A stretch of 33,154 nucleotides of DNA from Nitratifractor sp. (GTDB lineage: Bacteria > Campylobacterota > Campylobacteria > Campylobacterales > Sulfurovaceae). Under the pieces are notes generated by a model that worked only from the letters and a program-made list of their open reading frames with translations, had not been told where the DNA came from and ran no database searches. The stretch covers positions 1 to 33,154 of the forward strand of contig WFNP01000024.1 in assembly GCA_015488535.1 (NCBI GenBank). The letters run 5' to 3'. Shown in pieces: positions 9,020 to 25,279 of the stretch. Positions within the stretch are counted from its first letter, which is position 1, and each line of letters begins with the position of its first letter. The translations under genes and the position numbers were made by a program.

Positions 9020-10090
9020 TTATATCTTTAATTTAAAGCCTCCAATCTCTTCGAGTAGAGTGGTGGCATAGGCACCTTTTGGCAGAGAAAAAGAGAATAT
9101 TAACGCATTTTTTTCTCTGTCATAATCAGTAGATATATTTTTTGGATATATCCACGCTTCTCTTCTGCCTCCAGGTAGTGAAGTCAGCTCTTCATCATCA
9201 AATCTCTCTTCTATATATCGGGCATCAGATACTGCTTTTTTGGCTTTAAAACCCGGAAGTAATCCTGTGGGTATGATGGATTTGTTTGCAAAATTTTCAG
9301 ACTCTTTGAGCATATTGGAGCATATATACTCTTTTTTTGCTCTTTTGAGTATATCGCCTATGAATAGTTTAAAGAGTGGTTTCTGTTTTTTGAGTTCTTT
9401 TATCAATTCAGGTGGAAAATTCAAAATTTTGGAAGCTTTTTGGATAGAGTTTGACTCTATTACTTTACCAATTTTTACTCTCTCATTGAGCCAATCATTG
9501 AATAGCTTACTCTGCCATGCTGATACGAGCAGTTTTTCTCTACTTCCTTTGAGCCTTTTGCCACTGTGTGCTATATCTCTGCCTTGCTCCCAACTTTTGC
9601 TATCCTCTCCAAATCTTTGATATCCAAATCTATTTGGGATACCGTGTATAGATAGAAATTCGGCTCTTTCTTTAAAAATATCGGCATCTTTTGGTGATAT
9701 ATCTTGAAGCACTATTTTAAAATGGTTATATGAGAGATTGCCTATTTTTAAAGCTTGGTCATTTTTGTTGATTTCCAAAATCTCTATTCTGTCTGTTGTA
9801 ATATTTTTTAACTCTTTTTGGACTTCTATCGGTATAGAGATGTATTGGATTGAGATGGCATTTTTATCTTTGAGTCCCGCATAACCAATATCTCTTTCAT
9901 CTAATCCTGTGGCACTTTTAAGCACTGATATGAGTTTAAATGTGCTCATATTCTGTTTTTTGATTTTGAGCAGTAAAAATCTGCCTCTGTTGCTGGGCTT
10001 AAATGGAAGATGCTCTTCTACGAAAAATGTATCTATACTCTGTTTGAATTTAAATTTTACAGGCTCATTGAAATATGCACTTTGTCTCAT
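9020..10090 (-). CDS. truD: tRNA pseudouridine(13) synthase
   Basis: Converts uridine 13 of tRNA(Glu) to pseudouridine. The catalytic aspartate is Asp75 in the diagnostic GYAGLKDKNA. The family motifs PNRFGYQRFG (about 152-161) and a C-terminal PGGRREAW-LPKGAYAT stretch follow. At 356 residues it matches the family length. It ends just after the convergent haem-protein gene. Its start overlaps the stop of the upstream membrane-protein gene by four bases (ATGA), so the three minus-strand genes from 11807 to 9020 are probably one transcript. Functional linkage to the membrane proteins is not obvious. Confidence 0.95.
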   Translation of the reverse strand: MRQSAYFNEPVKFKFKQSIDTFFVEEHLPFKPSNRGRFLLLKIKKQNMSTFKLISVLKSATGLDERDIGYAGLKDKNAISIQYISIPIEVQKELKNITTDRIEILEINKNDQALKIGNLSYNHFKIVLQDISPKDADIFKERAEFLSIHGIPNRFGYQRFGEDSKSWEQGRDIAHSGKRLKGSREKLLVSAWQSKLFNDWLNERVKIGKVIESNSIQKASKILNFPPELIKELKKQKPLFKLFIGDILKRAKKEYICSNMLKESENFANKSIIPTGLLPGFKAKKAVSDARYIEERFDDEELTSLPGGRREAWIYPKNISTDYDREKNALIFSFSLPKGAYATTLLEEIGGFKLKI

Positions 10091-11355
10091 ATATCCTCCA
10101 AAAATATTATTTTTTCCACCTTGCCGTCATATTCGACATAGATATCATCACTTTTGTATATCGGCTTTTTGTCCAGCTTGATTAGTTTGAGAGATTGTGG
10201 TTCAATTGGTGTTATAGGCACTATACCGCTTTTGGACTTTAAGATGGCTGGATATAGACTGGTATTGAGTATCCAAAAATCACTACTGTCAGGAGAGTAT
10301 GGCAACTCTTTTTTGACTCCGCTTTTATGTGAACTGGCAATCCCTTCAAGTATAAATATATCATTATAGAAACTGTTTTCTACATCTTCTGGAACCAACT
10401 CTCCATTATCATCTCTTGAGACAAATCCTATGATATTAATACCGTCTTTTGTTTTTTGATTTATTAGAGAATATAGCTTTTTCTTGTCTTTAATCTTTTC
10501 CATACCATCAAATGAATAATAAGCATCTATATGGGCATTCATAATCAGCTTTTCAAATCTGTCAAACTGCTCATACTCATACTCAATCTTTTTGTTTTCT
10601 ATATATCCTTTTAAAGCTTTGGCAATTTTTCGGCTGTAAATGGATACTCTGCGATTTAGCAAAGGATCTATATATCTGTTTATAAGTTGGGCTACTGATT
10701 TGAATATTTTTCCAAAAATATCTGATAACACTCTCAATCCTCTGTTGATTGGATGCTTGGCTCCAAGCTTCCTCTCTAGATAATCAAAAAGCCAACTAAA
10801 TGCAAATACTTCCAGTATAGGTGTAAGCCAGGAGTTGAAAAGCAGAGACAAAGTTTTTGAAAGTATCAAAAGTAGTGTTTTTGAGATACTGATAATCAAT
10901 ACTTTCAGCTCTGCAAAGAGAAATATATGACTTAGATAACCGCTCATATATATAAACCAAAATGAAAATGCAGATATTATTATGGCAGTAATGATATTTT
11001 TTGTCTTTTTTTTGATATCCAGAGATAGATAATACTCTTTTGCCTCAATAAAGGCATGTTTGAGATGCTTAAAGATATGCTCTTTTAGCCATACTGAAAA
11101 TACATTATCAAGAAACCATCTTTTAATGATAAGAAGAGTCCCTTGAAACAGTGTCAATCCTTTGAGAAAAGCTATCATTTTGAGCTTGGATGCAGTAGCA
11201 AAAGAGAGCAGGGCAGTTTTGAAAATTACGGCTATACCTATCAGCCAGGCTGTAGCTATCTCTGTCCCGTCAGGGAAGAGATATAAAAATACCCATCCTA
11301 TGACTATAGATATAGCCAAAAGTATCGCTATAGCATCTCTTCTACGCAATATCAA
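10087..11355 (-). CDS. multi-pass membrane protein with cytosolic C-terminal domain, unknown
   Basis: A 422-residue protein I do not recognise. Hydrophobic segments lie at about 8-26, 33-54, 119-140, 145-170 and 178-194. Then come an arginine/lysine-rich amphipathic stretch (about 195-260) and a soluble C-terminal domain of roughly 160 residues, rich in beta strands toward the end. The start is a TTG at 11353-11355 that overlaps the upstream stop (TTGA), so translation is probably coupled to the 151-residue membrane protein before it. The 3' end overlaps truD. The pair might form one membrane complex; no catalytic motif is visible. Confidence 0.75.
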   Translation of the reverse strand: MILRRRDAIAILLAISIVIGWVFLYLFPDGTEIATAWLIGIAVIFKTALLSFATASKLKMIAFLKGLTLFQGTLLIIKRWFLDNVFSVWLKEHIFKHLKHAFIEAKEYYLSLDIKKKTKNIITAIIISAFSFWFIYMSGYLSHIFLFAELKVLIISISKTLLLILSKTLSLLFNSWLTPILEVFAFSWLFDYLERKLGAKHPINRGLRVLSDIFGKIFKSVAQLINRYIDPLLNRRVSIYSRKIAKALKGYIENKKIEYEYEQFDRFEKLIMNAHIDAYYSFDGMEKIKDKKKLYSLINQKTKDGINIIGFVSRDDNGELVPEDVENSFYNDIFILEGIASSHKSGVKKELPYSPDSSDFWILNTSLYPAILKSKSGIVPITPIEPQSLKLIKLDKKPIYKSDDIYVEYDGKVEKIIFLEDI

Positions 11356-19284: not shown

Positions 19285-21285
19285 TTATATAAACCAATTC
19301 ATCATAATATCTTTGTTATCAAGGTAAATTTTTAATTCACCAGTGCCGGGGAGTATTTGAAGTATATTATCTATACTATTTATCTCTATTCTAATAAGTG
19401 CTAGTTTGTTATTTTTTAAAGTATCTTTTTTTATGGAGAGTTCTATAATAGAGTCTATAGCTACTTTTATGCCATTTTTATTATAACTCTTATCTTTTGT
19501 ATTCACGGTTACAGGTTTCTTTGCGTGGTTAATATAGATATTTATTATATTGACTCTTTTTATATCACCATCTAATCTAATAAAAATATTTGAACTGTTT
19601 TTACCCCAATATATAGACTCTATTGGTCCTCTGACTCTATCCATTGTGGAGTATATTTTACTCTCATCTATCATGCCACTTCCAAGCCACTCAAAAAAGT
19701 TACTCTCTTTGCCGTCAATTATTGGACATATATCAAACTTTGGCTCACTTATAAAAGCTTTGCTATCACCTATTGAGACTATTGGAATAAACAGGTCAGA
19801 TGGTGGAGATATATCCATCAATTCATAAATAGTTATCAAATGCTCTCTAAATAGATTATCAAATTCATTAGCAAAATCTGTATGATGCGTATCTCCATAC
19901 CACCAAAACCAATCTGAGCATTGGGCTATCAAGAAATGCTCTTTTATCTGCTCTTGTCTCTTTTTTGATATACTCTTTTTGTGATTTTCGTAATCTTGAC
20001 GGGTATCAAATATTAACTCCCATGCTCTGTTTTTGTCACTATTCCCCACCCATGTATCAAATGTGCCTCCTATCCAAGAGCCGGGATGTAATTTAGTTAG
20101 ACTCTTTGAGGGCATTTGAGATACTTCATCCATTGTAACTGTTTTAATATCCCTGTTTTGAGACAATTTAGTGTATAAAGTCTCAAAAAACTCTATTGCA
20201 TTATCTGGATAAAACTCCCAGGCATTTTCTCCATCAAGTATAATTGATACAATCTCTCCATCCAATTTGGATATTTTGCCAATCAAATCATCTACTGCTT
20301 TGTTACTCTCCCAATACTTATAGCTAAATCCTATCAAGTCACTAATATCATGGTCTCTAAAAGCTATATTGATACCAAATCTATTCCAATTTTTATATAG
20401 ATTACTTCTGTCTTTATTATCAATAGAAGCAAACAAAATAGCTTCATCAGTAGCTATCCAATTGAGTTTAAATTCTTTGTATATATCTATACTCTTATCA
20501 TCTACTGCTCCTTCAGCCGGCCAAAAGCCTGTGGGAGCAAAACCAAAAGTATCCTTATAGATTTTAATGGCTCTACTTACCTGCTCTTTGGCATCATCTA
20601 TCAAAGAGAAGTGATTGGTGGGTATTTTGGTATTTGGATTTGATATAGTAGCATTATTCATATCTATAAGCAGTGGCAAAATAGGGTGATTGAGTGGAGT
20701 AGTAGATAGTGAAATTTTGCCTTGTTGTTTGAGTGTGGCATAAAATGGCAATATTGTAGGGATAAAATCCAGTAGTGTATCTATCAATACTTTTTTATCT
20801 TCGTTTTTGTAATCTCTAGCTTGATTTAAGAACTTTTTGACAATATTGTTATCTTTCCTTAGATAATTACCACACCAAGATAGTATAAAAAGTATCTCCA
20901 AATCAATAAATTCATTATCGCTATAACTCTCTTTTGAATATAACTCATCAAATCTCTTCAAAGGTTTTACCATAGTCTCATATTGAGCAGATTTGATGAT
21001 TTTTAGAATAAACTCTTTATCTTCATTTGAGAGTAAATAAGGCTCCTTTATCCAAAGAGATAAAAATTTATCTTTTTTGTATCCATATTTTTCATAAACT
21101 TTTAGTTGATTTATAAGAGGTATAGTGATATTGAATGTAGCTAATATCTCATCAAAGCGAGATATTAGCCACGGCATATCATAATAATCTTTTATAGCAT
21201 GTAAAAATACCCATGGCATACCTATTATCCCTGATTTGTCTCTATAATCGGGTTGATGCATATGCCAAAAAAAACTAAGATACAC
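19285..21285 (-). CDS. glycoside hydrolase family 57 (alpha-glucan-active)
   Basis: A 666-residue GH57 enzyme, probably cytoplasmic since no signal peptide is seen. Family motifs: HMHQPDY at the N-terminus (His10-Gln11-Pro12), STTPLNHPILPLL (about 194-206), the nucleophile Glu258 in GFWPAEGAV, and the acid/base Asp351 in ILDGENAWE. The (beta/alpha)7 catalytic barrel and helical bundle end near residue 470. The last 190 residues look like a beta-sandwich domain. GH57 members include alpha-amylases, branching enzymes and 4-alpha-glucanotransferases; the exact reaction cannot be chosen by eye. It starts 6 bases after the nucleotidyltransferase fusion stops, in an operon with a CBM48 domain and phosphofructokinase. 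Confidence 0.92.
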   Translation of the reverse strand: MYLSFFWHMHQPDYRDKSGIIGMPWVFLHAIKDYYDMPWLISRFDEILATFNITIPLINQLKVYEKYGYKKDKFLSLWIKEPYLLSNEDKEFILKIIKSAQYETMVKPLKRFDELYSKESYSDNEFIDLEILFILSWCGNYLRKDNNIVKKFLNQARDYKNEDKKVLIDTLLDFIPTILPFYATLKQQGKISLSTTPLNHPILPLLIDMNNATISNPNTKIPTNHFSLIDDAKEQVSRAIKIYKDTFGFAPTGFWPAEGAVDDKSIDIYKEFKLNWIATDEAILFASIDNKDRSNLYKNWNRFGINIAFRDHDISDLIGFSYKYWESNKAVDDLIGKISKLDGEIVSIILDGENAWEFYPDNAIEFFETLYTKLSQNRDIKTVTMDEVSQMPSKSLTKLHPGSWIGGTFDTWVGNSDKNRAWELIFDTRQDYENHKKSISKKRQEQIKEHFLIAQCSDWFWWYGDTHHTDFANEFDNLFREHLITIYELMDISPPSDLFIPIVSIGDSKAFISEPKFDICPIIDGKESNFFEWLGSGMIDESKIYSTMDRVRGPIESIYWGKNSSNIFIRLDGDIKRVNIINIYINHAKKPVTVNTKDKSYNKNGIKVAIDSIIELSIKKDTLKNNKLALIRIEINSIDNILQILPGTGELKIYLDNKDIMMNWFI

Positions 21286-21291
21286 TACTCT

Positions 21292-23808
21292 TTACTCCGA
21301 CATCCACTTAGATATCATACTGAAATATCTATCTTTTAATTCAACTCCTAATTTTTCATCCAAGGCTTGAATATAGATATTTAAATGCTCACTGTATGAG
21401 TCTGGTATCATTAGTATCCAGTTACTTTCACTCTCCCAAATTTTGACTCCATCTATGGTGGAGTTTTTTTTGCCTTTACTGGCTTCTAAAAATTTTCTCA
21501 TCATTTTGCCTTTTAGAGCCTGTGGACACTTCACTTTTTGGGTAGTGTAATAAAATTTTGGAATGCTTTTAGCAATGTCAGATATTTTTACTCCGTGTCT
21601 GCTTAACATCTGCGTAATTTTTAGAGTAGCATACATAGCATCTCTGTGTAGTTGAAACTCTGTAAAGGCATAGTTGCCATCTATTGTAGCTACCAAATCA
21701 TACTCTTTAAGTTTTTGGGGTTTGAAGTTGTTATATATCCCTCTTTCAATCTCAATATACTCATACTCTATCAAATCAGGAGCCCATGTCGGTAAAAATA
21801 CTCTCATTTTTCTGCCGACTCTTTTACCTTCCATATTCATCAGAGATAACACAATAGGCAAAGATTTAATCTTGTCATAATATTTGCCTTTATCTCCAAT
21901 GAGTGCCATTCTCTGACCACCGGGATATATCATAAATCCTGCATCAAGAGCAAGTGATGTTACTATGGTGCTAAGCTCACTTACAGCCTTTTCCTGCACA
22001 CATTGTATATCACTCAATGCTTTTGTATGAGCTTGTGGGCGTAGTGTAATAGCATCAAGTCCCAACTCCTCTAAAATATCAGGAAATATATCTCCGGTGA
22101 TTCCTTTCATCATATCTACTGCTATTCTCATTTTTTTGCTATGGAGTGCCTGTCTGTCTATATGAGCAGTAATTGTGCTTCTGTAATCATGACACTCTCT
22201 AAAATGAAGGCTCTCTTTGATTTCACCGATTTTGTTAAACTCTACTCTTCTAAATTTTTCATTGAAAAATGATTTTTCTATTGATTTGGCACTATTATTA
22301 TCAATTCTGAGTGCAAATTCATTAAAAAAGTTTATCTCTGTGGAGGTTGGGTCATCTATATTTCGTCTAAAATATACTCCACCAATCAATTTGGGATTAT
22401 TAGCCAAAGTAAATCTAAGCACAGATGGTGGCACACTCTTTACATCTACTACATCAATACCAGCAGATAACAATCCACCCAAAAAGGCTCTTTTTAGCAT
22501 TCTTGAGCTTTTGCCATGGTCTCTGCCTACTACTACTGTCGAGCCGATAGGCAATTCACTTGCAAATGCTTCGGCAAGTTTAGTAACCATTTCACAACTT
22601 AGCTCTACATTGGTTTTGCCAACTACACTGCCATTTTGGAATATGGAATTTTTATATCTGCTACCCCATACGACATTATGGCTCACAATCGAGGCTGGTT
22701 CTATCTCTTTTTCAGGCCAAATTGTTACATCTTGGTCAAATCTTGCTAATTTGCCTACATAACACCCCTCAGCCAATATGAGTCCAGCTTTTGCTGTAAC
22801 ATTATCTTCTATAATATTATTATTGCAAATTACTCCATTATCCAATACAAACTTTTTGCCTATTTTTACTGAATGCCATATTACAGAGTTGCGAATTTTA
22901 GCTTCTTGCTCAATCTCTACATTATCACCAATGGCTACATTATTGAGTTTACACCCGTGTCCTAATTTGACATTATCTCCGATTACTACATTGCCAATTA
23001 TCTCTATACTCTCATCTATTTTGCTATCGCCTGTGAGATAGAGTGTGCCATCTGGATATTTGATAGCTTTTCCTGGTATTTTAAAAGAGAGTCTTTGATT
23101 TAGTATATCATCATGCACTTCTCTGTAGCTGTCAGGATTGCCTACATCTCTCCAATACCCTTTGGCATTGTATCCGAGCAAATCAATTCCTTCTTGCATC
23201 AATAGAGGAAACAAATCTTTTGCAAAATCAAAATTTTCTCCCACAGGAATAAAATCGAGTATTTCAGGCTCAATAATATATATACCGGTGTTTATAGTAT
23301 CACTAAATACCTCTCCCCAGCTTGGCTTTTCTAAAAATTTTTCTATTTTATTATCTTCATTGGCTATGACTACACCAAATTGAAGAGGATTATCTACGGA
23401 AGTGAGTGTAATAGTAAGTTTGGACTCTCTTTTTTTGTGAAAATTAAAAATCTCTTTAAAATCAAAATCTGTCACAAGGTCACCGCTGACTATCATAAAG
23501 GTAGTATCAAGATACTCTCTGCCAAATCCTACAGCTCCGGCAGTGCCATAATCATCATCAGGTAAAACATAGTGTATTTTTATACCATATTGACTACCGT
23601 CTCCAAAATGATTTTTAATCACTTCAGGCTTGTAATAGAGCAGTATTACTACCTCTTTGACGCCACTATCAATTAGTTTGAGCAGAGTATGCTCCATCAT
23701 AGGAAGATTTACAACAGGTAGCATAGGTTTGGGGATAGAGTGGGTGAGTGGTTGTATTCTTGTTCCAAATCCTCCTGCCATCATTACAGCTTTTAGACCT
23801 TTTGACAT
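21292..23808 (-). CDS. sugar-phosphate nucleotidyltransferase fused to a degenerate phosphomannomutase-like region
   Basis: An 838-residue fusion. Residues 1-235 form a nucleotidyltransferase with AGGFGTRIQPLT and the PKPML lysine (about 11-31) plus the SGDLVTD metal aspartate (about 108-114). Residues about 250-370 are left-handed beta-helix hexapeptide repeats (IGDNV units). Residues about 375-838 follow a phosphohexomutase fold, but all motifs are altered: the TASHNP serine loop reads FRRNIDDP (480-487), the DGDGDR metal loop reads YPGGQR (628-633), and the C-terminal RPSGTEP loop reads IPDSYSE. The mutase half is therefore probably inactive as such. Similar long fusions in cyanobacteria and actinobacteria are labelled mannose-1-phosphate guanylyltransferase; sugar and nucleotide here are unproven. 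AAAAGGAG precedes the ATG. Confidence 0.85.
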   Translation of the reverse strand: MSKGLKAVMMAGGFGTRIQPLTHSIPKPMLPVVNLPMMEHTLLKLIDSGVKEVVILLYYKPEVIKNHFGDGSQYGIKIHYVLPDDDYGTAGAVGFGREYLDTTFMIVSGDLVTDFDFKEIFNFHKKRESKLTITLTSVDNPLQFGVVIANEDNKIEKFLEKPSWGEVFSDTINTGIYIIEPEILDFIPVGENFDFAKDLFPLLMQEGIDLLGYNAKGYWRDVGNPDSYREVHDDILNQRLSFKIPGKAIKYPDGTLYLTGDSKIDESIEIIGNVVIGDNVKLGHGCKLNNVAIGDNVEIEQEAKIRNSVIWHSVKIGKKFVLDNGVICNNNIIEDNVTAKAGLILAEGCYVGKLARFDQDVTIWPEKEIEPASIVSHNVVWGSRYKNSIFQNGSVVGKTNVELSCEMVTKLAEAFASELPIGSTVVVGRDHGKSSRMLKRAFLGGLLSAGIDVVDVKSVPPSVLRFTLANNPKLIGGVYFRRNIDDPTSTEINFFNEFALRIDNNSAKSIEKSFFNEKFRRVEFNKIGEIKESLHFRECHDYRSTITAHIDRQALHSKKMRIAVDMMKGITGDIFPDILEELGLDAITLRPQAHTKALSDIQCVQEKAVSELSTIVTSLALDAGFMIYPGGQRMALIGDKGKYYDKIKSLPIVLSLMNMEGKRVGRKMRVFLPTWAPDLIEYEYIEIERGIYNNFKPQKLKEYDLVATIDGNYAFTEFQLHRDAMYATLKITQMLSRHGVKISDIAKSIPKFYYTTQKVKCPQALKGKMMRKFLEASKGKKNSTIDGVKIWESESNWILMIPDSYSEHLNIYIQALDEKLGVELKDRYFSMISKWMSE

Positions 23809-23886: not shown

Positions 23887-24023
23887 AACTAATCTTATGC
23901 ACAAAAAAACAGTATTCAGCAACATTCTACAGGAGGCAAGGTTTCAATCCTGCACTGTGCAGGATTGAAGTCCTGGCTCCAAACTAAATTACACTTAAAC
24001 AAGTTATATGCGTAATATCAGTC
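23887..24023. repeat. MITE/REP-like element, copy 3 (about 137 bp)
   Basis: Terminal inverted repeats at about 23887-23906 and 24004-24023 match at 14 of 19 compared positions. The centre (23932-23980) aligns with copy 2: GGAGGC...GGCTCC arms, CAGGA/TCCTG hairpins, and a 7-bp perfect stem CCTGCAC/GTGCAGG in the middle. It separates the phosphofructokinase-CBM48 pair from the rest of the operon, and its end touches the CBM48 stop codon. Confidence 0.8.
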
Positions 24024-24301
24024 TATAAATGGATTACAGAGTTAAGAGAGCCAAATGGAGACTCTTTTATCTCAACACTCTCATCATGTATCCATTCACC
24101 ATCTTGATTTTCATATCCAAATTCATAACTGTTTTTGTTTGAAAGTATCCTTGTGATATAAAAATCACCATTTCTTTTTCTCTTCATCTCTTTTGGTTTC
24201 CAACTGTCCCAACTCCCCTTAATATATAACTCTTCACAATTAGGAGCATCAACAGTAAAGGTAACCCAGGATTTTGAGCCTCTTTTTGTAATTTTTACCA
24301 T
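24023..24301 (-). CDS. stand-alone glycogen-binding (CBM48/AMPK-beta-like) domain protein
   Basis: A 92-residue protein that is a single E-set beta-sandwich. The pattern V-x-F-x-V-x-A-P-N-C-x-x-L-Y-I-K-G-S-W-D-S-W at residues 13-34 is the signature of isoamylase-N/AMPK-beta glycogen-binding domains, with the tryptophans of the SWDSW element as likely glucan contacts. A second half, YEFGYENQDGEWIHD, completes the fold. It has no catalytic domain, so it may target a partner such as the neighbouring GH57 enzyme or kinase to alpha-glucan (inference). It starts 18 bases after the phosphofructokinase gene. Its TAG stop (24023-24025) overlaps the edge of a MITE-like element, so the natural C-terminus may have been altered. 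Confidence 0.82.
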   Translation of the reverse strand: MVKITKRGSKSWVTFTVDAPNCEELYIKGSWDSWKPKEMKRKRNGDFYITRILSNKNSYEFGYENQDGEWIHDESVEIKESPFGSLNSVIHL

Positions 24302-24319: not shown

Positions 24320-25279
24320 TTAATCTAATTGATTGAGCATACTCAAGTGATACTCATTTACTCTGTTTTTGTTGCTTACAACTGTTTCTATATCAAGCAG
24401 ACCAAATTCGCCTCTGTTCCAAACTACTACTTTATTTGAGTTTGTGCTGTTTTGCAAGTGCTTGAGTGCCTGTATTGTAAATTCAAATCCCATCATTCTA
24501 TCAAATGTGCTAGGAGTGCCACCTCTTTGGATATGTCCTAGAATTGTTACTCTTGTATCCATTCCTAATTTATTTTCTAAACAATCGGCTATCTCTTGGG
24601 TCTTTTTGGTCCCTTCTGCAACGATAGCCAATATATATCTTCTGCCATTTTCAAGCTCATATCTCATCTGTTTTTCAATGAGTGGAATATTGCACTCAAC
24701 CTCAGGTATTACACAAATTTCTGCTCCTGAGCTGATAGCTGAAATTGCAGCAAGATATCCGCACTCTCTACCCATTACCTCCACAACAAAGGCTCTATTA
24801 AAAGTAGATGCTGTATCATAAATTTTATCCAAAGCATCTCTGATTGTATTAAGAGCTGTATCTACACCCAGACAATACTCTGTGCCGTATATATCATTAT
24901 CTATTGTAGTAGGAATACCTACAAAATTGATATTAAACTCTTCCCAAAATCTATCCATAGCCCTAAAGGAGCCATCTCCACCAAGCACTACAAGACCATC
25001 TATAGCAAATTTTTTCAGATTTTCATATGCTTGCTTGCGATATTTGTATTCATAAAACCTCTTTGAGCGAGATGAGCGGATAACTGCACCCCCTCTGTGC
25101 AAAATACCTGCTACATCATCGTGAGAAGCTTGTTTTATTTTGCCGTCAATCAAACCTTCAAGCCCATCGTAGATTAGATATGCTTCAATCCCCAGCTTTT
25201 TAGTATAATCTACAAATTTTTTAATTGCTGCATTCATTCCAGGAGCATCACCCCCCGAACACATAATAGCGTATGCCAT
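24320..25279 (-). CDS. pfkA: ATP-dependent 6-phosphofructokinase
   Basis: A 319-residue enzyme phosphorylating fructose 6-phosphate, the committed step of glycolysis. It has GGDAPGMNAAI at the N-terminus, GGDGS at 100-104 and TTIDND at 124-129 with catalytic Asp127. VEVMGRECGYLA and HIQRGGTPS bind the sugar phosphate. Glycine in GGDGS and threonine before TIDND mark the ATP-using rather than pyrophosphate-using form. AAAGGAAG precedes the ATG. It heads the minus-strand sugar cluster. Many Campylobacterota (e.g. Campylobacter jejuni) lack this enzyme, so its presence points to carbohydrate storage or glycolytic use here. Confidence 0.95.
   Translation of the reverse strand: MAYAIMCSGGDAPGMNAAIKKFVDYTKKLGIEAYLIYDGLEGLIDGKIKQASHDDVAGILHRGGAVIRSSRSKRFYEYKYRKQAYENLKKFAIDGLVVLGGDGSFRAMDRFWEEFNINFVGIPTTIDNDIYGTEYCLGVDTALNTIRDALDKIYDTASTFNRAFVVEVMGRECGYLAAISAISSGAEICVIPEVECNIPLIEKQMRYELENGRRYILAIVAEGTKKTQEIADCLENKLGMDTRVTILGHIQRGGTPSTFDRMMGFEFTIQALKHLQNSTNSNKVVVWNRGEFGLLDIETVVSNKNRVNEYHLSMLNQLD

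What the first reader, a model, noticed from the sequence alone, without database searches (positions are those of the whole stretch)
21292..23808. Nucleotidyltransferase fused to a phosphomannomutase-like half without its catalytic motifs
The serine loop (FRRNIDDP), metal loop (YPGGQR) and phosphate loop (IPDSYSE) all depart from the active consensus, while the overall fold pattern and length are kept. The mutase half may now be a regulatory sensor or hold a new activity. The usual label as a bifunctional mannose enzyme would then be wrong.
Basis: partly seen in the sequence, partly recalled or inferred. Interest (0 to 1): 0.58.

Follow-up and report, generated by a model that had tools for sequence, protein, structure and literature searches.

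The report
Glycogen nucleotidyltransferase with dead mutase domain
A bacterial protein usually read as a two-in-one mannose enzyme has a mutase half without its catalytic loops, and its gene travels with glycogen synthase, so it is probably the missing sugar-activating enzyme of glycogen storage.

Summary
The sugar loop is altered too. Across 125 aligned relatives (118 distinct) from many phyla, none keeps DxDxDR or RxSGTE. As a control, 30 of 30 separate mutases from the same kinds of genomes have SHN and DxDxDR. A serine survives at the aligned catalytic position in 58 of 118, not in the window protein. The mutase half is under purifying selection, so it is a conserved pseudo-mutase rather than decay.

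Context argues against a mannose role. Neighbours are a glycogen-binding protein, PFK and GH57. In 150 genomes of the phylum the fusion occurs in 20, and full glycogen synthase (GT5) in exactly those 20. GlgC occurs in none and GalU in 148. The window genome has an ADP-glucose-type GlgA and a GlgB but no GlgC. Best reading: the fusion makes the NDP-glucose for glycogen (GlgC substitute), and the dead mutase half is a regulatory or docking domain. Product, ligand and regulation were not tested. In clades without glycogen neighbours (e.g. Streptomyces) the product may differ. I found no description of this in the papers searched.

The parts
21292..23808 (-). CDS of the fusion protein, 838 aa
   Evidence: aligned full-length relatives
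23098..23793 (-). nucleotidyltransferase domain (aa 6-237), catalytic motifs kept
   Evidence: PF00483 E 6.2e-54; GGFGTR..PKP, SGDL.TDF, FLEKP, WRDVGNP conserved
22750..23046 (-). left-handed beta-helix domain (aa 255-353), eIF2B-epsilon type
   Evidence: PF25084 64.7 bits, cut-off 54; model
22249..22644 (-). phosphohexomutase domain I (aa 389-520)
   Evidence: PF02878
22348..22371 (-). degenerate serine loop FRRNIDDP (aa 480-487)
21892..22188 (-). phosphohexomutase domain II (aa 541-639)
   Evidence: PF02879
21910..21927 (-). degenerate metal loop YPGGQR (aa 628-633)
21544..21888 (-). phosphohexomutase domain III (about aa 641-755)
   Evidence: PF02880 weak; structure alignment covers it
21655..21687 (-). 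degenerate sugar loop TIDGNYAFTEF (aa 708-718)
21295..21543 (-). phosphohexomutase domain IV (about aa 756-838)
   Evidence: structure alignment to aa 835-838
21388..21408 (-). degenerate phosphate loop IPDSYSE (aa 801-807)
19285..21285 (-). GH57 alpha-glucan-active protein, directly downstream, same strand
   Evidence: PF03065 E 1.3e-52; next gene in 37 of 81 related loci
24023..24301 (-). 92-aa AMPK-type glycogen-binding module protein, upstream
   Evidence: PF16561 32.2 bits, cut-off 26.8; directly upstream in 9 of 81 related loci
24320..25279 (-). 6-phosphofructokinase, same strand
   Evidence: PF00365 E 1.7e-100

Best explanation
The protein is a sugar-1-phosphate nucleotidyltransferase that supplies the nucleotide-glucose (ADP-glucose most likely, UDP-glucose possible) used by the GT5 glycogen synthase in bacteria that lack GlgC. 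The N-terminal half does the chemistry: glucose-1-phosphate + NTP gives NDP-glucose + PPi. The beta-helix makes the oligomer, as in AGPase, GMPP and eIF2B. The C-terminal half keeps the four-domain phosphohexomutase fold but not the phosphoserine, Mg, sugar and phosphate loops. It cannot run the phosphohexomutase cycle and most likely acts as an internal regulatory or docking domain that senses a hexose phosphate or a partner protein. SHOWN by computation: loop loss across the family, kept fold, purifying selection, intact nucleotidyltransferase motifs, glycogen neighbourhood, tight co-occurrence with GT5, absence of GlgC in the sampled phylum. INFERRED: reaction product, nucleotide used, oligomer, regulatory role and its ligand.
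For: Loops: 0 of 125 family members have DxDxDR or RxSGTE in the mutase half, against 30 of 30 separate mutases with SHN and DxDxDR. Selection: dN/dS of the mutase half 0.03-0.22 in the 25 closest pairs listed of 89. NT motifs: A11-G13, G15, R17, P26, P28, D110, E160-K161, D221 invariant in 52 members, T16 and K27 nearly so. Co-occurrence: fusion in 20 of 150 genomes of the phylum; full-length GT5 (E<=2.9e-69) in the same 20 and in no other (3 further genomes have only weak partial matches, E>=6.6e-7); GlgC in 0 of 150; GalU in 148 of 150. One fusion+GT5 genome, G225, gave no GalU match. Within the family: 33 genomes with both, 2 fusion only, 1 GT5 only, 64 neither, of 100. Other phyla: of 43 fusion-bearing genomes 37 have GT5 and 5 have GlgC, so 32 have GT5 without GlgC. 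Own genome: GlgA passes TIGR02095 'ADP-glucose type' (538.8 vs 328.45), GlgB passes, on one contig with a ROK kinase. Neighbours: GH57, 4-alpha-glucanotransferase, GalT-like, GT5, phosphorylase, ROK. Separate mutase genes lie about 4-14 kb from the fusion in 5 of 14 genomes checked.
Against: No biochemical data. GalU is present in the window genome, and P. aeruginosa is reported to feed its GlgA from GalU without GlgC (PMC11046441, passage). The NT half resembles GDP-mannose pyrophosphorylases more than GlgC: best NCBIfam score is mannose-1-phosphate guanylyltransferase, 255 bits, cut-off 440. Of 76 loci in which the fusion gene was placed, 30 show no glycogen gene in the DNA fetched, some because the contig ends; the three annotated Streptomyces loci have no glycogen neighbours either. 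Six of 43 fusion genomes show no GT5. A serine is kept at the aligned catalytic position in 58 of 118, and three members (L115, L135, L139) keep 4-5 of 9 catalytic positions. Co-occurrence tests were not corrected for phylogeny.
Confidence: 0.66

Rival explanations
1. GalU supplies UDP-glucose to GlgA (as reported for P. aeruginosa), and the fusion makes another nucleotide sugar or acts only as a regulator in the glycogen cluster.
For: GalU is present in 148 of 150 genomes, including the window genome. P. aeruginosa precedent (PMC11046441 passage).
Against: GT5 follows the fusion, not GalU. Genome G225 has fusion and GT5 but no GalU match. Own GlgA scores above the cut-off of the ADP-glucose-type model.
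Confidence: 0.17
2. The usual label is right: a GDP-mannose pyrophosphorylase with a phosphomannomutase half that works by an unusual site.
For: Nearest NCBIfam and PDB relatives of the NT half are mannose-1-phosphate guanylyltransferases and a UTP--glucose-1-phosphate uridylyltransferase (tlr0611). Fold of the mutase half is kept.
Against: All four catalytic loops are lost in the window protein; glycogen gene neighbours and co-occurrence; separate mutases with intact loops in the same genome; below cut-off for the guanylyltransferase model.
Confidence: 0.07
3. The mutase half has a new catalytic activity on a phosphosugar, using the conserved residues of the altered loops.
For: Conserved non-canonical loops ([H/Y]FR.., P.G[Q/E][R/K], DG, LPD) and kept fold; a serine in 58 of 118 members.
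Against: No D at the third metal position in any member and D at the second in only 1 of 118; no activity known to me for such loops.
Confidence: 0.1

Closest known systems
GlgC, ADP-glucose pyrophosphorylase (TIGR02091)
   Same: NT domain plus left-handed beta-helix; placed with glycogen synthase; predicted to make NDP-glucose
   Different: 138.7 bits against a cut-off of 424.9; carries an extra pseudo-mutase half
GDP-mannose pyrophosphorylase GMPPB / bacterial Rv3264c type (NF052502; PDB 7d72, 7whr, 7x8j)
   Same: nearest NT relatives, beta-helix; Z about 37
   Different: below the family cut-off (255 vs 440); glycogen context; extra mutase half
tlr0611 (PDB 8x7s), named UTP--glucose-1-phosphate uridylyltransferase (cyanobacterial CugP identity is recalled, not tested)
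   Same: best profile match in the PDB, to the NT half
   Different: no mutase half
Archaeal-type PGM/PMM (PDB 9du5, 1wqa; TIGR03990)
   Same: four-domain fold of the C-terminal half, Z 40-41
   Different: catalytic loops lost; 164.9 bits against a cut-off of 439
PGM5/aciculin, GMPPA and eIF2B gamma/epsilon (non-catalytic relatives; GMPPA's role is recalled)
   Same: precedents for sugar-phosphate enzymes turned structural or regulatory; PGM5 reported to lack activity (PMC5570346, passage); eIF2B epsilon among the structure matches, one entry titled 'Sugar phosphate activation of the stress sensor eIF2B'
   Different: stand-alone eukaryotic proteins; here the dead domain is fused to a nucleotidyltransferase with intact motifs

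Membership tests
Active alpha-D-phosphohexomutase | phosphoserine loop (SHNP type) | tested here: not met
   window protein has FRRNIDDP; SHNP in 0 of 125. A serine at the aligned position remains in 58 of 118 distinct members, not in this protein
Active alpha-D-phosphohexomutase | Mg loop DxDxDR | tested here: not met
   0 of 125 fusions, 30 of 30 separate mutases
Active alpha-D-phosphohexomutase | sugar loop GExS and phosphate loop RxSGT | tested here: not met
   absent from the window protein; RxSGT 0 of 125; aligned ExS in 2 of 125; in the control 27 of 30 and 25 of 30 matched my regexes
Active alpha-D-phosphohexomutase | four-domain fold | tested here: met
   model aligned over aa 386-838
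Nucleotidyltransferase superfamily (PF00483) | GGxGTR...PKP, catalytic Asp, EKP, WxDVG motifs (motif roles recalled) | tested here: met
GlgC (TIGR02091) | score above curated cut-off | tested here: not met
   138.7 vs 424.9
GlgC role | makes ADP-glucose | not testable with these tools
   only context and co-occurrence
Mannose-1-phosphate guanylyltransferase (NF052502) | score above curated cut-off | tested here: not met
   255.2 vs 440
Mannose-1-phosphate guanylyltransferase (NF052502) | makes GDP-mannose | not testable with these tools
   needs an enzyme assay

The most novel reading that the evidence does not exclude
A widespread family of fusions, read as mannose enzymes, is the dedicated NDP-glucose pyrophosphorylase of glycogen synthesis in GlgC-less bacteria of many phyla. 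Its dead phosphohexomutase half is a built-in hexose-phosphate sensor that reports the glucose-phosphate pool to the nucleotidyltransferase. The small gene placed directly in front of it in different clades (AMPK-type glycogen-binding module in Campylobacterota, lone receiver domain in Geobacter-like bacteria, STAS domain in one Streptomyces) adds a clade-specific control input.
Probability: 0.3. Interest if true: 0.78.

Novelty: new variant of a known kind. Interest (0 to 1): 0.62.

Why it matters
Glycogen synthesis in Campylobacterota and in several other groups sampled here has a glycogen synthase but no recognisable GlgC. This family is a strong candidate to fill that gap. It would correct a mannose annotation in many genomes, and it would add a bacterial case of a catalytic fold reused as an internal control domain, close in build to eIF2B and GMPPA/GMPPB. 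It can be tested with one knockout and one enzyme assay.

Tried and rejected
Plus-strand reading: rejected, 32 stops. Recent pseudogene or sequencing error: rejected, since the loops are altered in all 125 aligned members and dN/dS is low. Intact motifs elsewhere in the chain: rejected, none found apart from one SHN at aa 376 in the beta-helix tail. Organism relying on this half for mutase activity: rejected, since the genome has GlmM, PGM and PMM-like genes with intact Ser and metal loops. Full-length solved structure: none among the best 60 matches shown.

Alignment caveat: the second reference mutase (PMM) aligned out of register at the Ser loop, so the motif counts rest on the GlmM reference and on the alignment-free test. 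The receiver, HK, GH57 and other neighbour clusters come from single-linkage clustering of my own ORF calls, with one to five members per cluster tested against Pfam. Literature: ten searches gave no paper that I could see describing this fusion or its pseudo-mutase; the library holds open-licence PMC papers only. Papers were seen as passages only: PMC11046441, PMC3958643, PMC5570346, PMC11406935, PMC12113678, PMC12475003, PMC10395257; all others as search listings. The PHROGs scan added nothing.

Full report
WHAT IS THERE. The finding is one ORF of 838 aa on the minus strand, 21292-23808. It has a nucleotidyltransferase domain, an eIF2B-epsilon-type left-handed beta-helix and a phosphohexomutase half. 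The AlphaFold model from 49 sequences has mean pLDDT 90.3 and pTM 0.67, so the domains are reliable and their mutual orientation less so. The C-terminal half aligns end to end with archaeal PGM/PMM (9du5 Z 41.2, 437 residues, rmsd 2.9). The N-terminal half aligns with GDP-mannose pyrophosphorylases and eIF2B (Z about 37).

THE LOOPS. All four active-site loops that define the superfamily (listed in PMC5570346, passage) are altered in the window protein: serine FRRNIDDP, metal YPGGQR, sugar TIDGNYAFTEF, phosphate IPDSYSE. I aligned 124 relatives plus the window protein, 118 of them distinct. Seven loci were dropped because the reading was short, cut or interrupted. SHNP, DxDxD and RxSGT are absent from all 125. 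Residual states: Ser at the aligned position in 58 of 118, first Asp in 32, second Asp in 1, third Asp in 0; three members keep 4-5 of nine catalytic positions. An alignment-free test found DxDxDR in 0 of 125 fusions and in 30 of 30 separate mutases from 14 genomes. My sugar- and phosphate-loop regexes matched 27 and 25 of those 30; the misses are PMM-like or variant loops. Six fusions contain a GExS-like string somewhere in that half.

IT IS NOT DECAY. Nei-Gojobori dN/dS of the mutase half is 0.03-0.22 in the 25 most similar pairs printed of 89 (NT half 0.02-0.11; dS is saturated in some pairs). The half has its own conserved residues, for example F390, D430, Y542, D565, G624, G641, D723 and G787 in all 52 of a diverse set. 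The nucleotidyltransferase motifs are intact.

THE GENOME HAS OTHER MUTASES. The window genome has three other PGM_PMM_I genes, namely GlmM, PGM and a PMM-like gene, with intact serine and metal loops. In 5 of 14 genomes checked (G010, G104, G111, G171, G229) a separate mutase gene lies about 4-14 kb from the fusion; those five (L161, L162, L163, L165, L169) keep the serine and metal loops.

THE CONTEXT IS GLYCOGEN. On the same strand stand PFK (24320-25279), a 92-aa AMPK-type glycogen-binding protein (24023-24301), the fusion, and a GH57 protein that starts 6 nt after it. In 81 related loci (fetched flanks, many cut by contig ends): GH57 directly downstream in 37, a GH57 4-alpha-glucanotransferase cluster in 20, a GalT-like cluster in 28, a GT5 cluster in 28, a phosphorylase cluster in 17, a ROK kinase cluster in 10, the glycogen-binding protein directly upstream in 9. 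Of 76 loci in which the fusion gene was placed, 46 have at least one such glycogen gene and 30 have none. The window genome keeps glgA and glgB with a ROK kinase on another contig, C30. GlgA passes the 'ADP-glucose type' model and GlgB its model.

CO-OCCURRENCE. Phylum sample, 150 genomes: fusion 20; GT5 at E<=2.9e-69 in the same 20, plus three genomes with weak partial matches only, E 6.6e-7 to 6.9e-4; GlgC 0; GalU 148. G225 has fusion and GT5 but no GalU match. Family sample, 100 genomes: both 33, fusion only 2 (G038, G056), GT5 only 1 (G074, 74% complete), neither 64. Fisher p values are 2.8e-25 and 6.7e-23 without correction for phylogeny; the two samples share G000 and a few relatives. 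In 43 fusion genomes chosen from the other hits, mostly outside the phylum, GT5 was found in 37 (two of these at about 2e-32) and GlgC in 5, all Geobacteraceae-type (G254, G259, G260, G261, G264).

HOW IT LIKELY WORKS. Shown: intact NT motifs, dead mutase loops, kept fold, selection, glycogen context and co-occurrence. Inferred: the NT half makes ADP-glucose (or UDP-glucose) for GlgA, the beta-helix builds an oligomer, and the mutase half serves as a regulatory or docking domain. A weak hint for regulation is the small gene directly in front of the fusion in different clades: glycogen-binding module (9 loci), lone receiver domain (a 14-locus cluster, directly upstream in 11; 5 members tested, all Response_reg), with a histidine kinase cluster in 9 loci of the set, and STAS in one Streptomyces locus.

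COMPARISON AND NOVELTY. The fusion passes no curated model among the 25 best NCBIfam matches shown: guanylyltransferase 255 of 440, GlgC 139 of 425, archaeal GlmM 165 of 439; four divergent relatives do not pass theirs either. A 2014 pan-genome paper says that vent-specific clusters of Epsilonproteobacteria encode glycogen production and use (PMC3958643, passage) but the passages do not name this gene. A 2024 review (passages) does not contain 'mannomutase' in the part held and reports the GalU route for P. aeruginosa. I judge it a new variant of a known kind. Main doubts: product unknown, GalU rival, and clades without glycogen neighbours.

Noticed in passing
window 23932-23980: Near-perfect inverted repeat (24-nt arms, 83% complementary, 1-nt centre) in the gap between the glycogen-binding gene and the fusion; two similar copies (3 mismatches) elsewhere in the genome. 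May be a terminator, attenuator or small palindromic element.
   Followed up: partly
L088, L092, L096, L099, L121 and others, directly upstream of the fusion: A lone receiver domain (Response_reg, no output domain) stands directly before the fusion in 11 loci, with a GAF-histidine kinase cluster in 9 loci of the set; suggests two-component control of the enzyme.
   Followed up: partly
window 19285-21285 (-): GH57 protein; best PDB matches are recent entries (8zyi, 9jlq, 9iht series) named only 'GH57 N-terminal domain-containing protein', E about 1e-95, while the branching-enzyme model barely matches.
   Followed up: partly
L058 (Sulfuricurvum kujiense plasmid pSULKU01) 8016-10553: A fusion gene on a 118-kb plasmid, away from glycogen genes, next to a patatin-like phospholipase gene.
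   Followed up: no
window 10087-11355 (-): 422-aa ORF without any Pfam match at E<=0.001.
   Followed up: no
G014 and L043, L020: Some relatives have the fusion gene split or with an in-frame stop; not checked whether real or assembly error.
   Followed up: no
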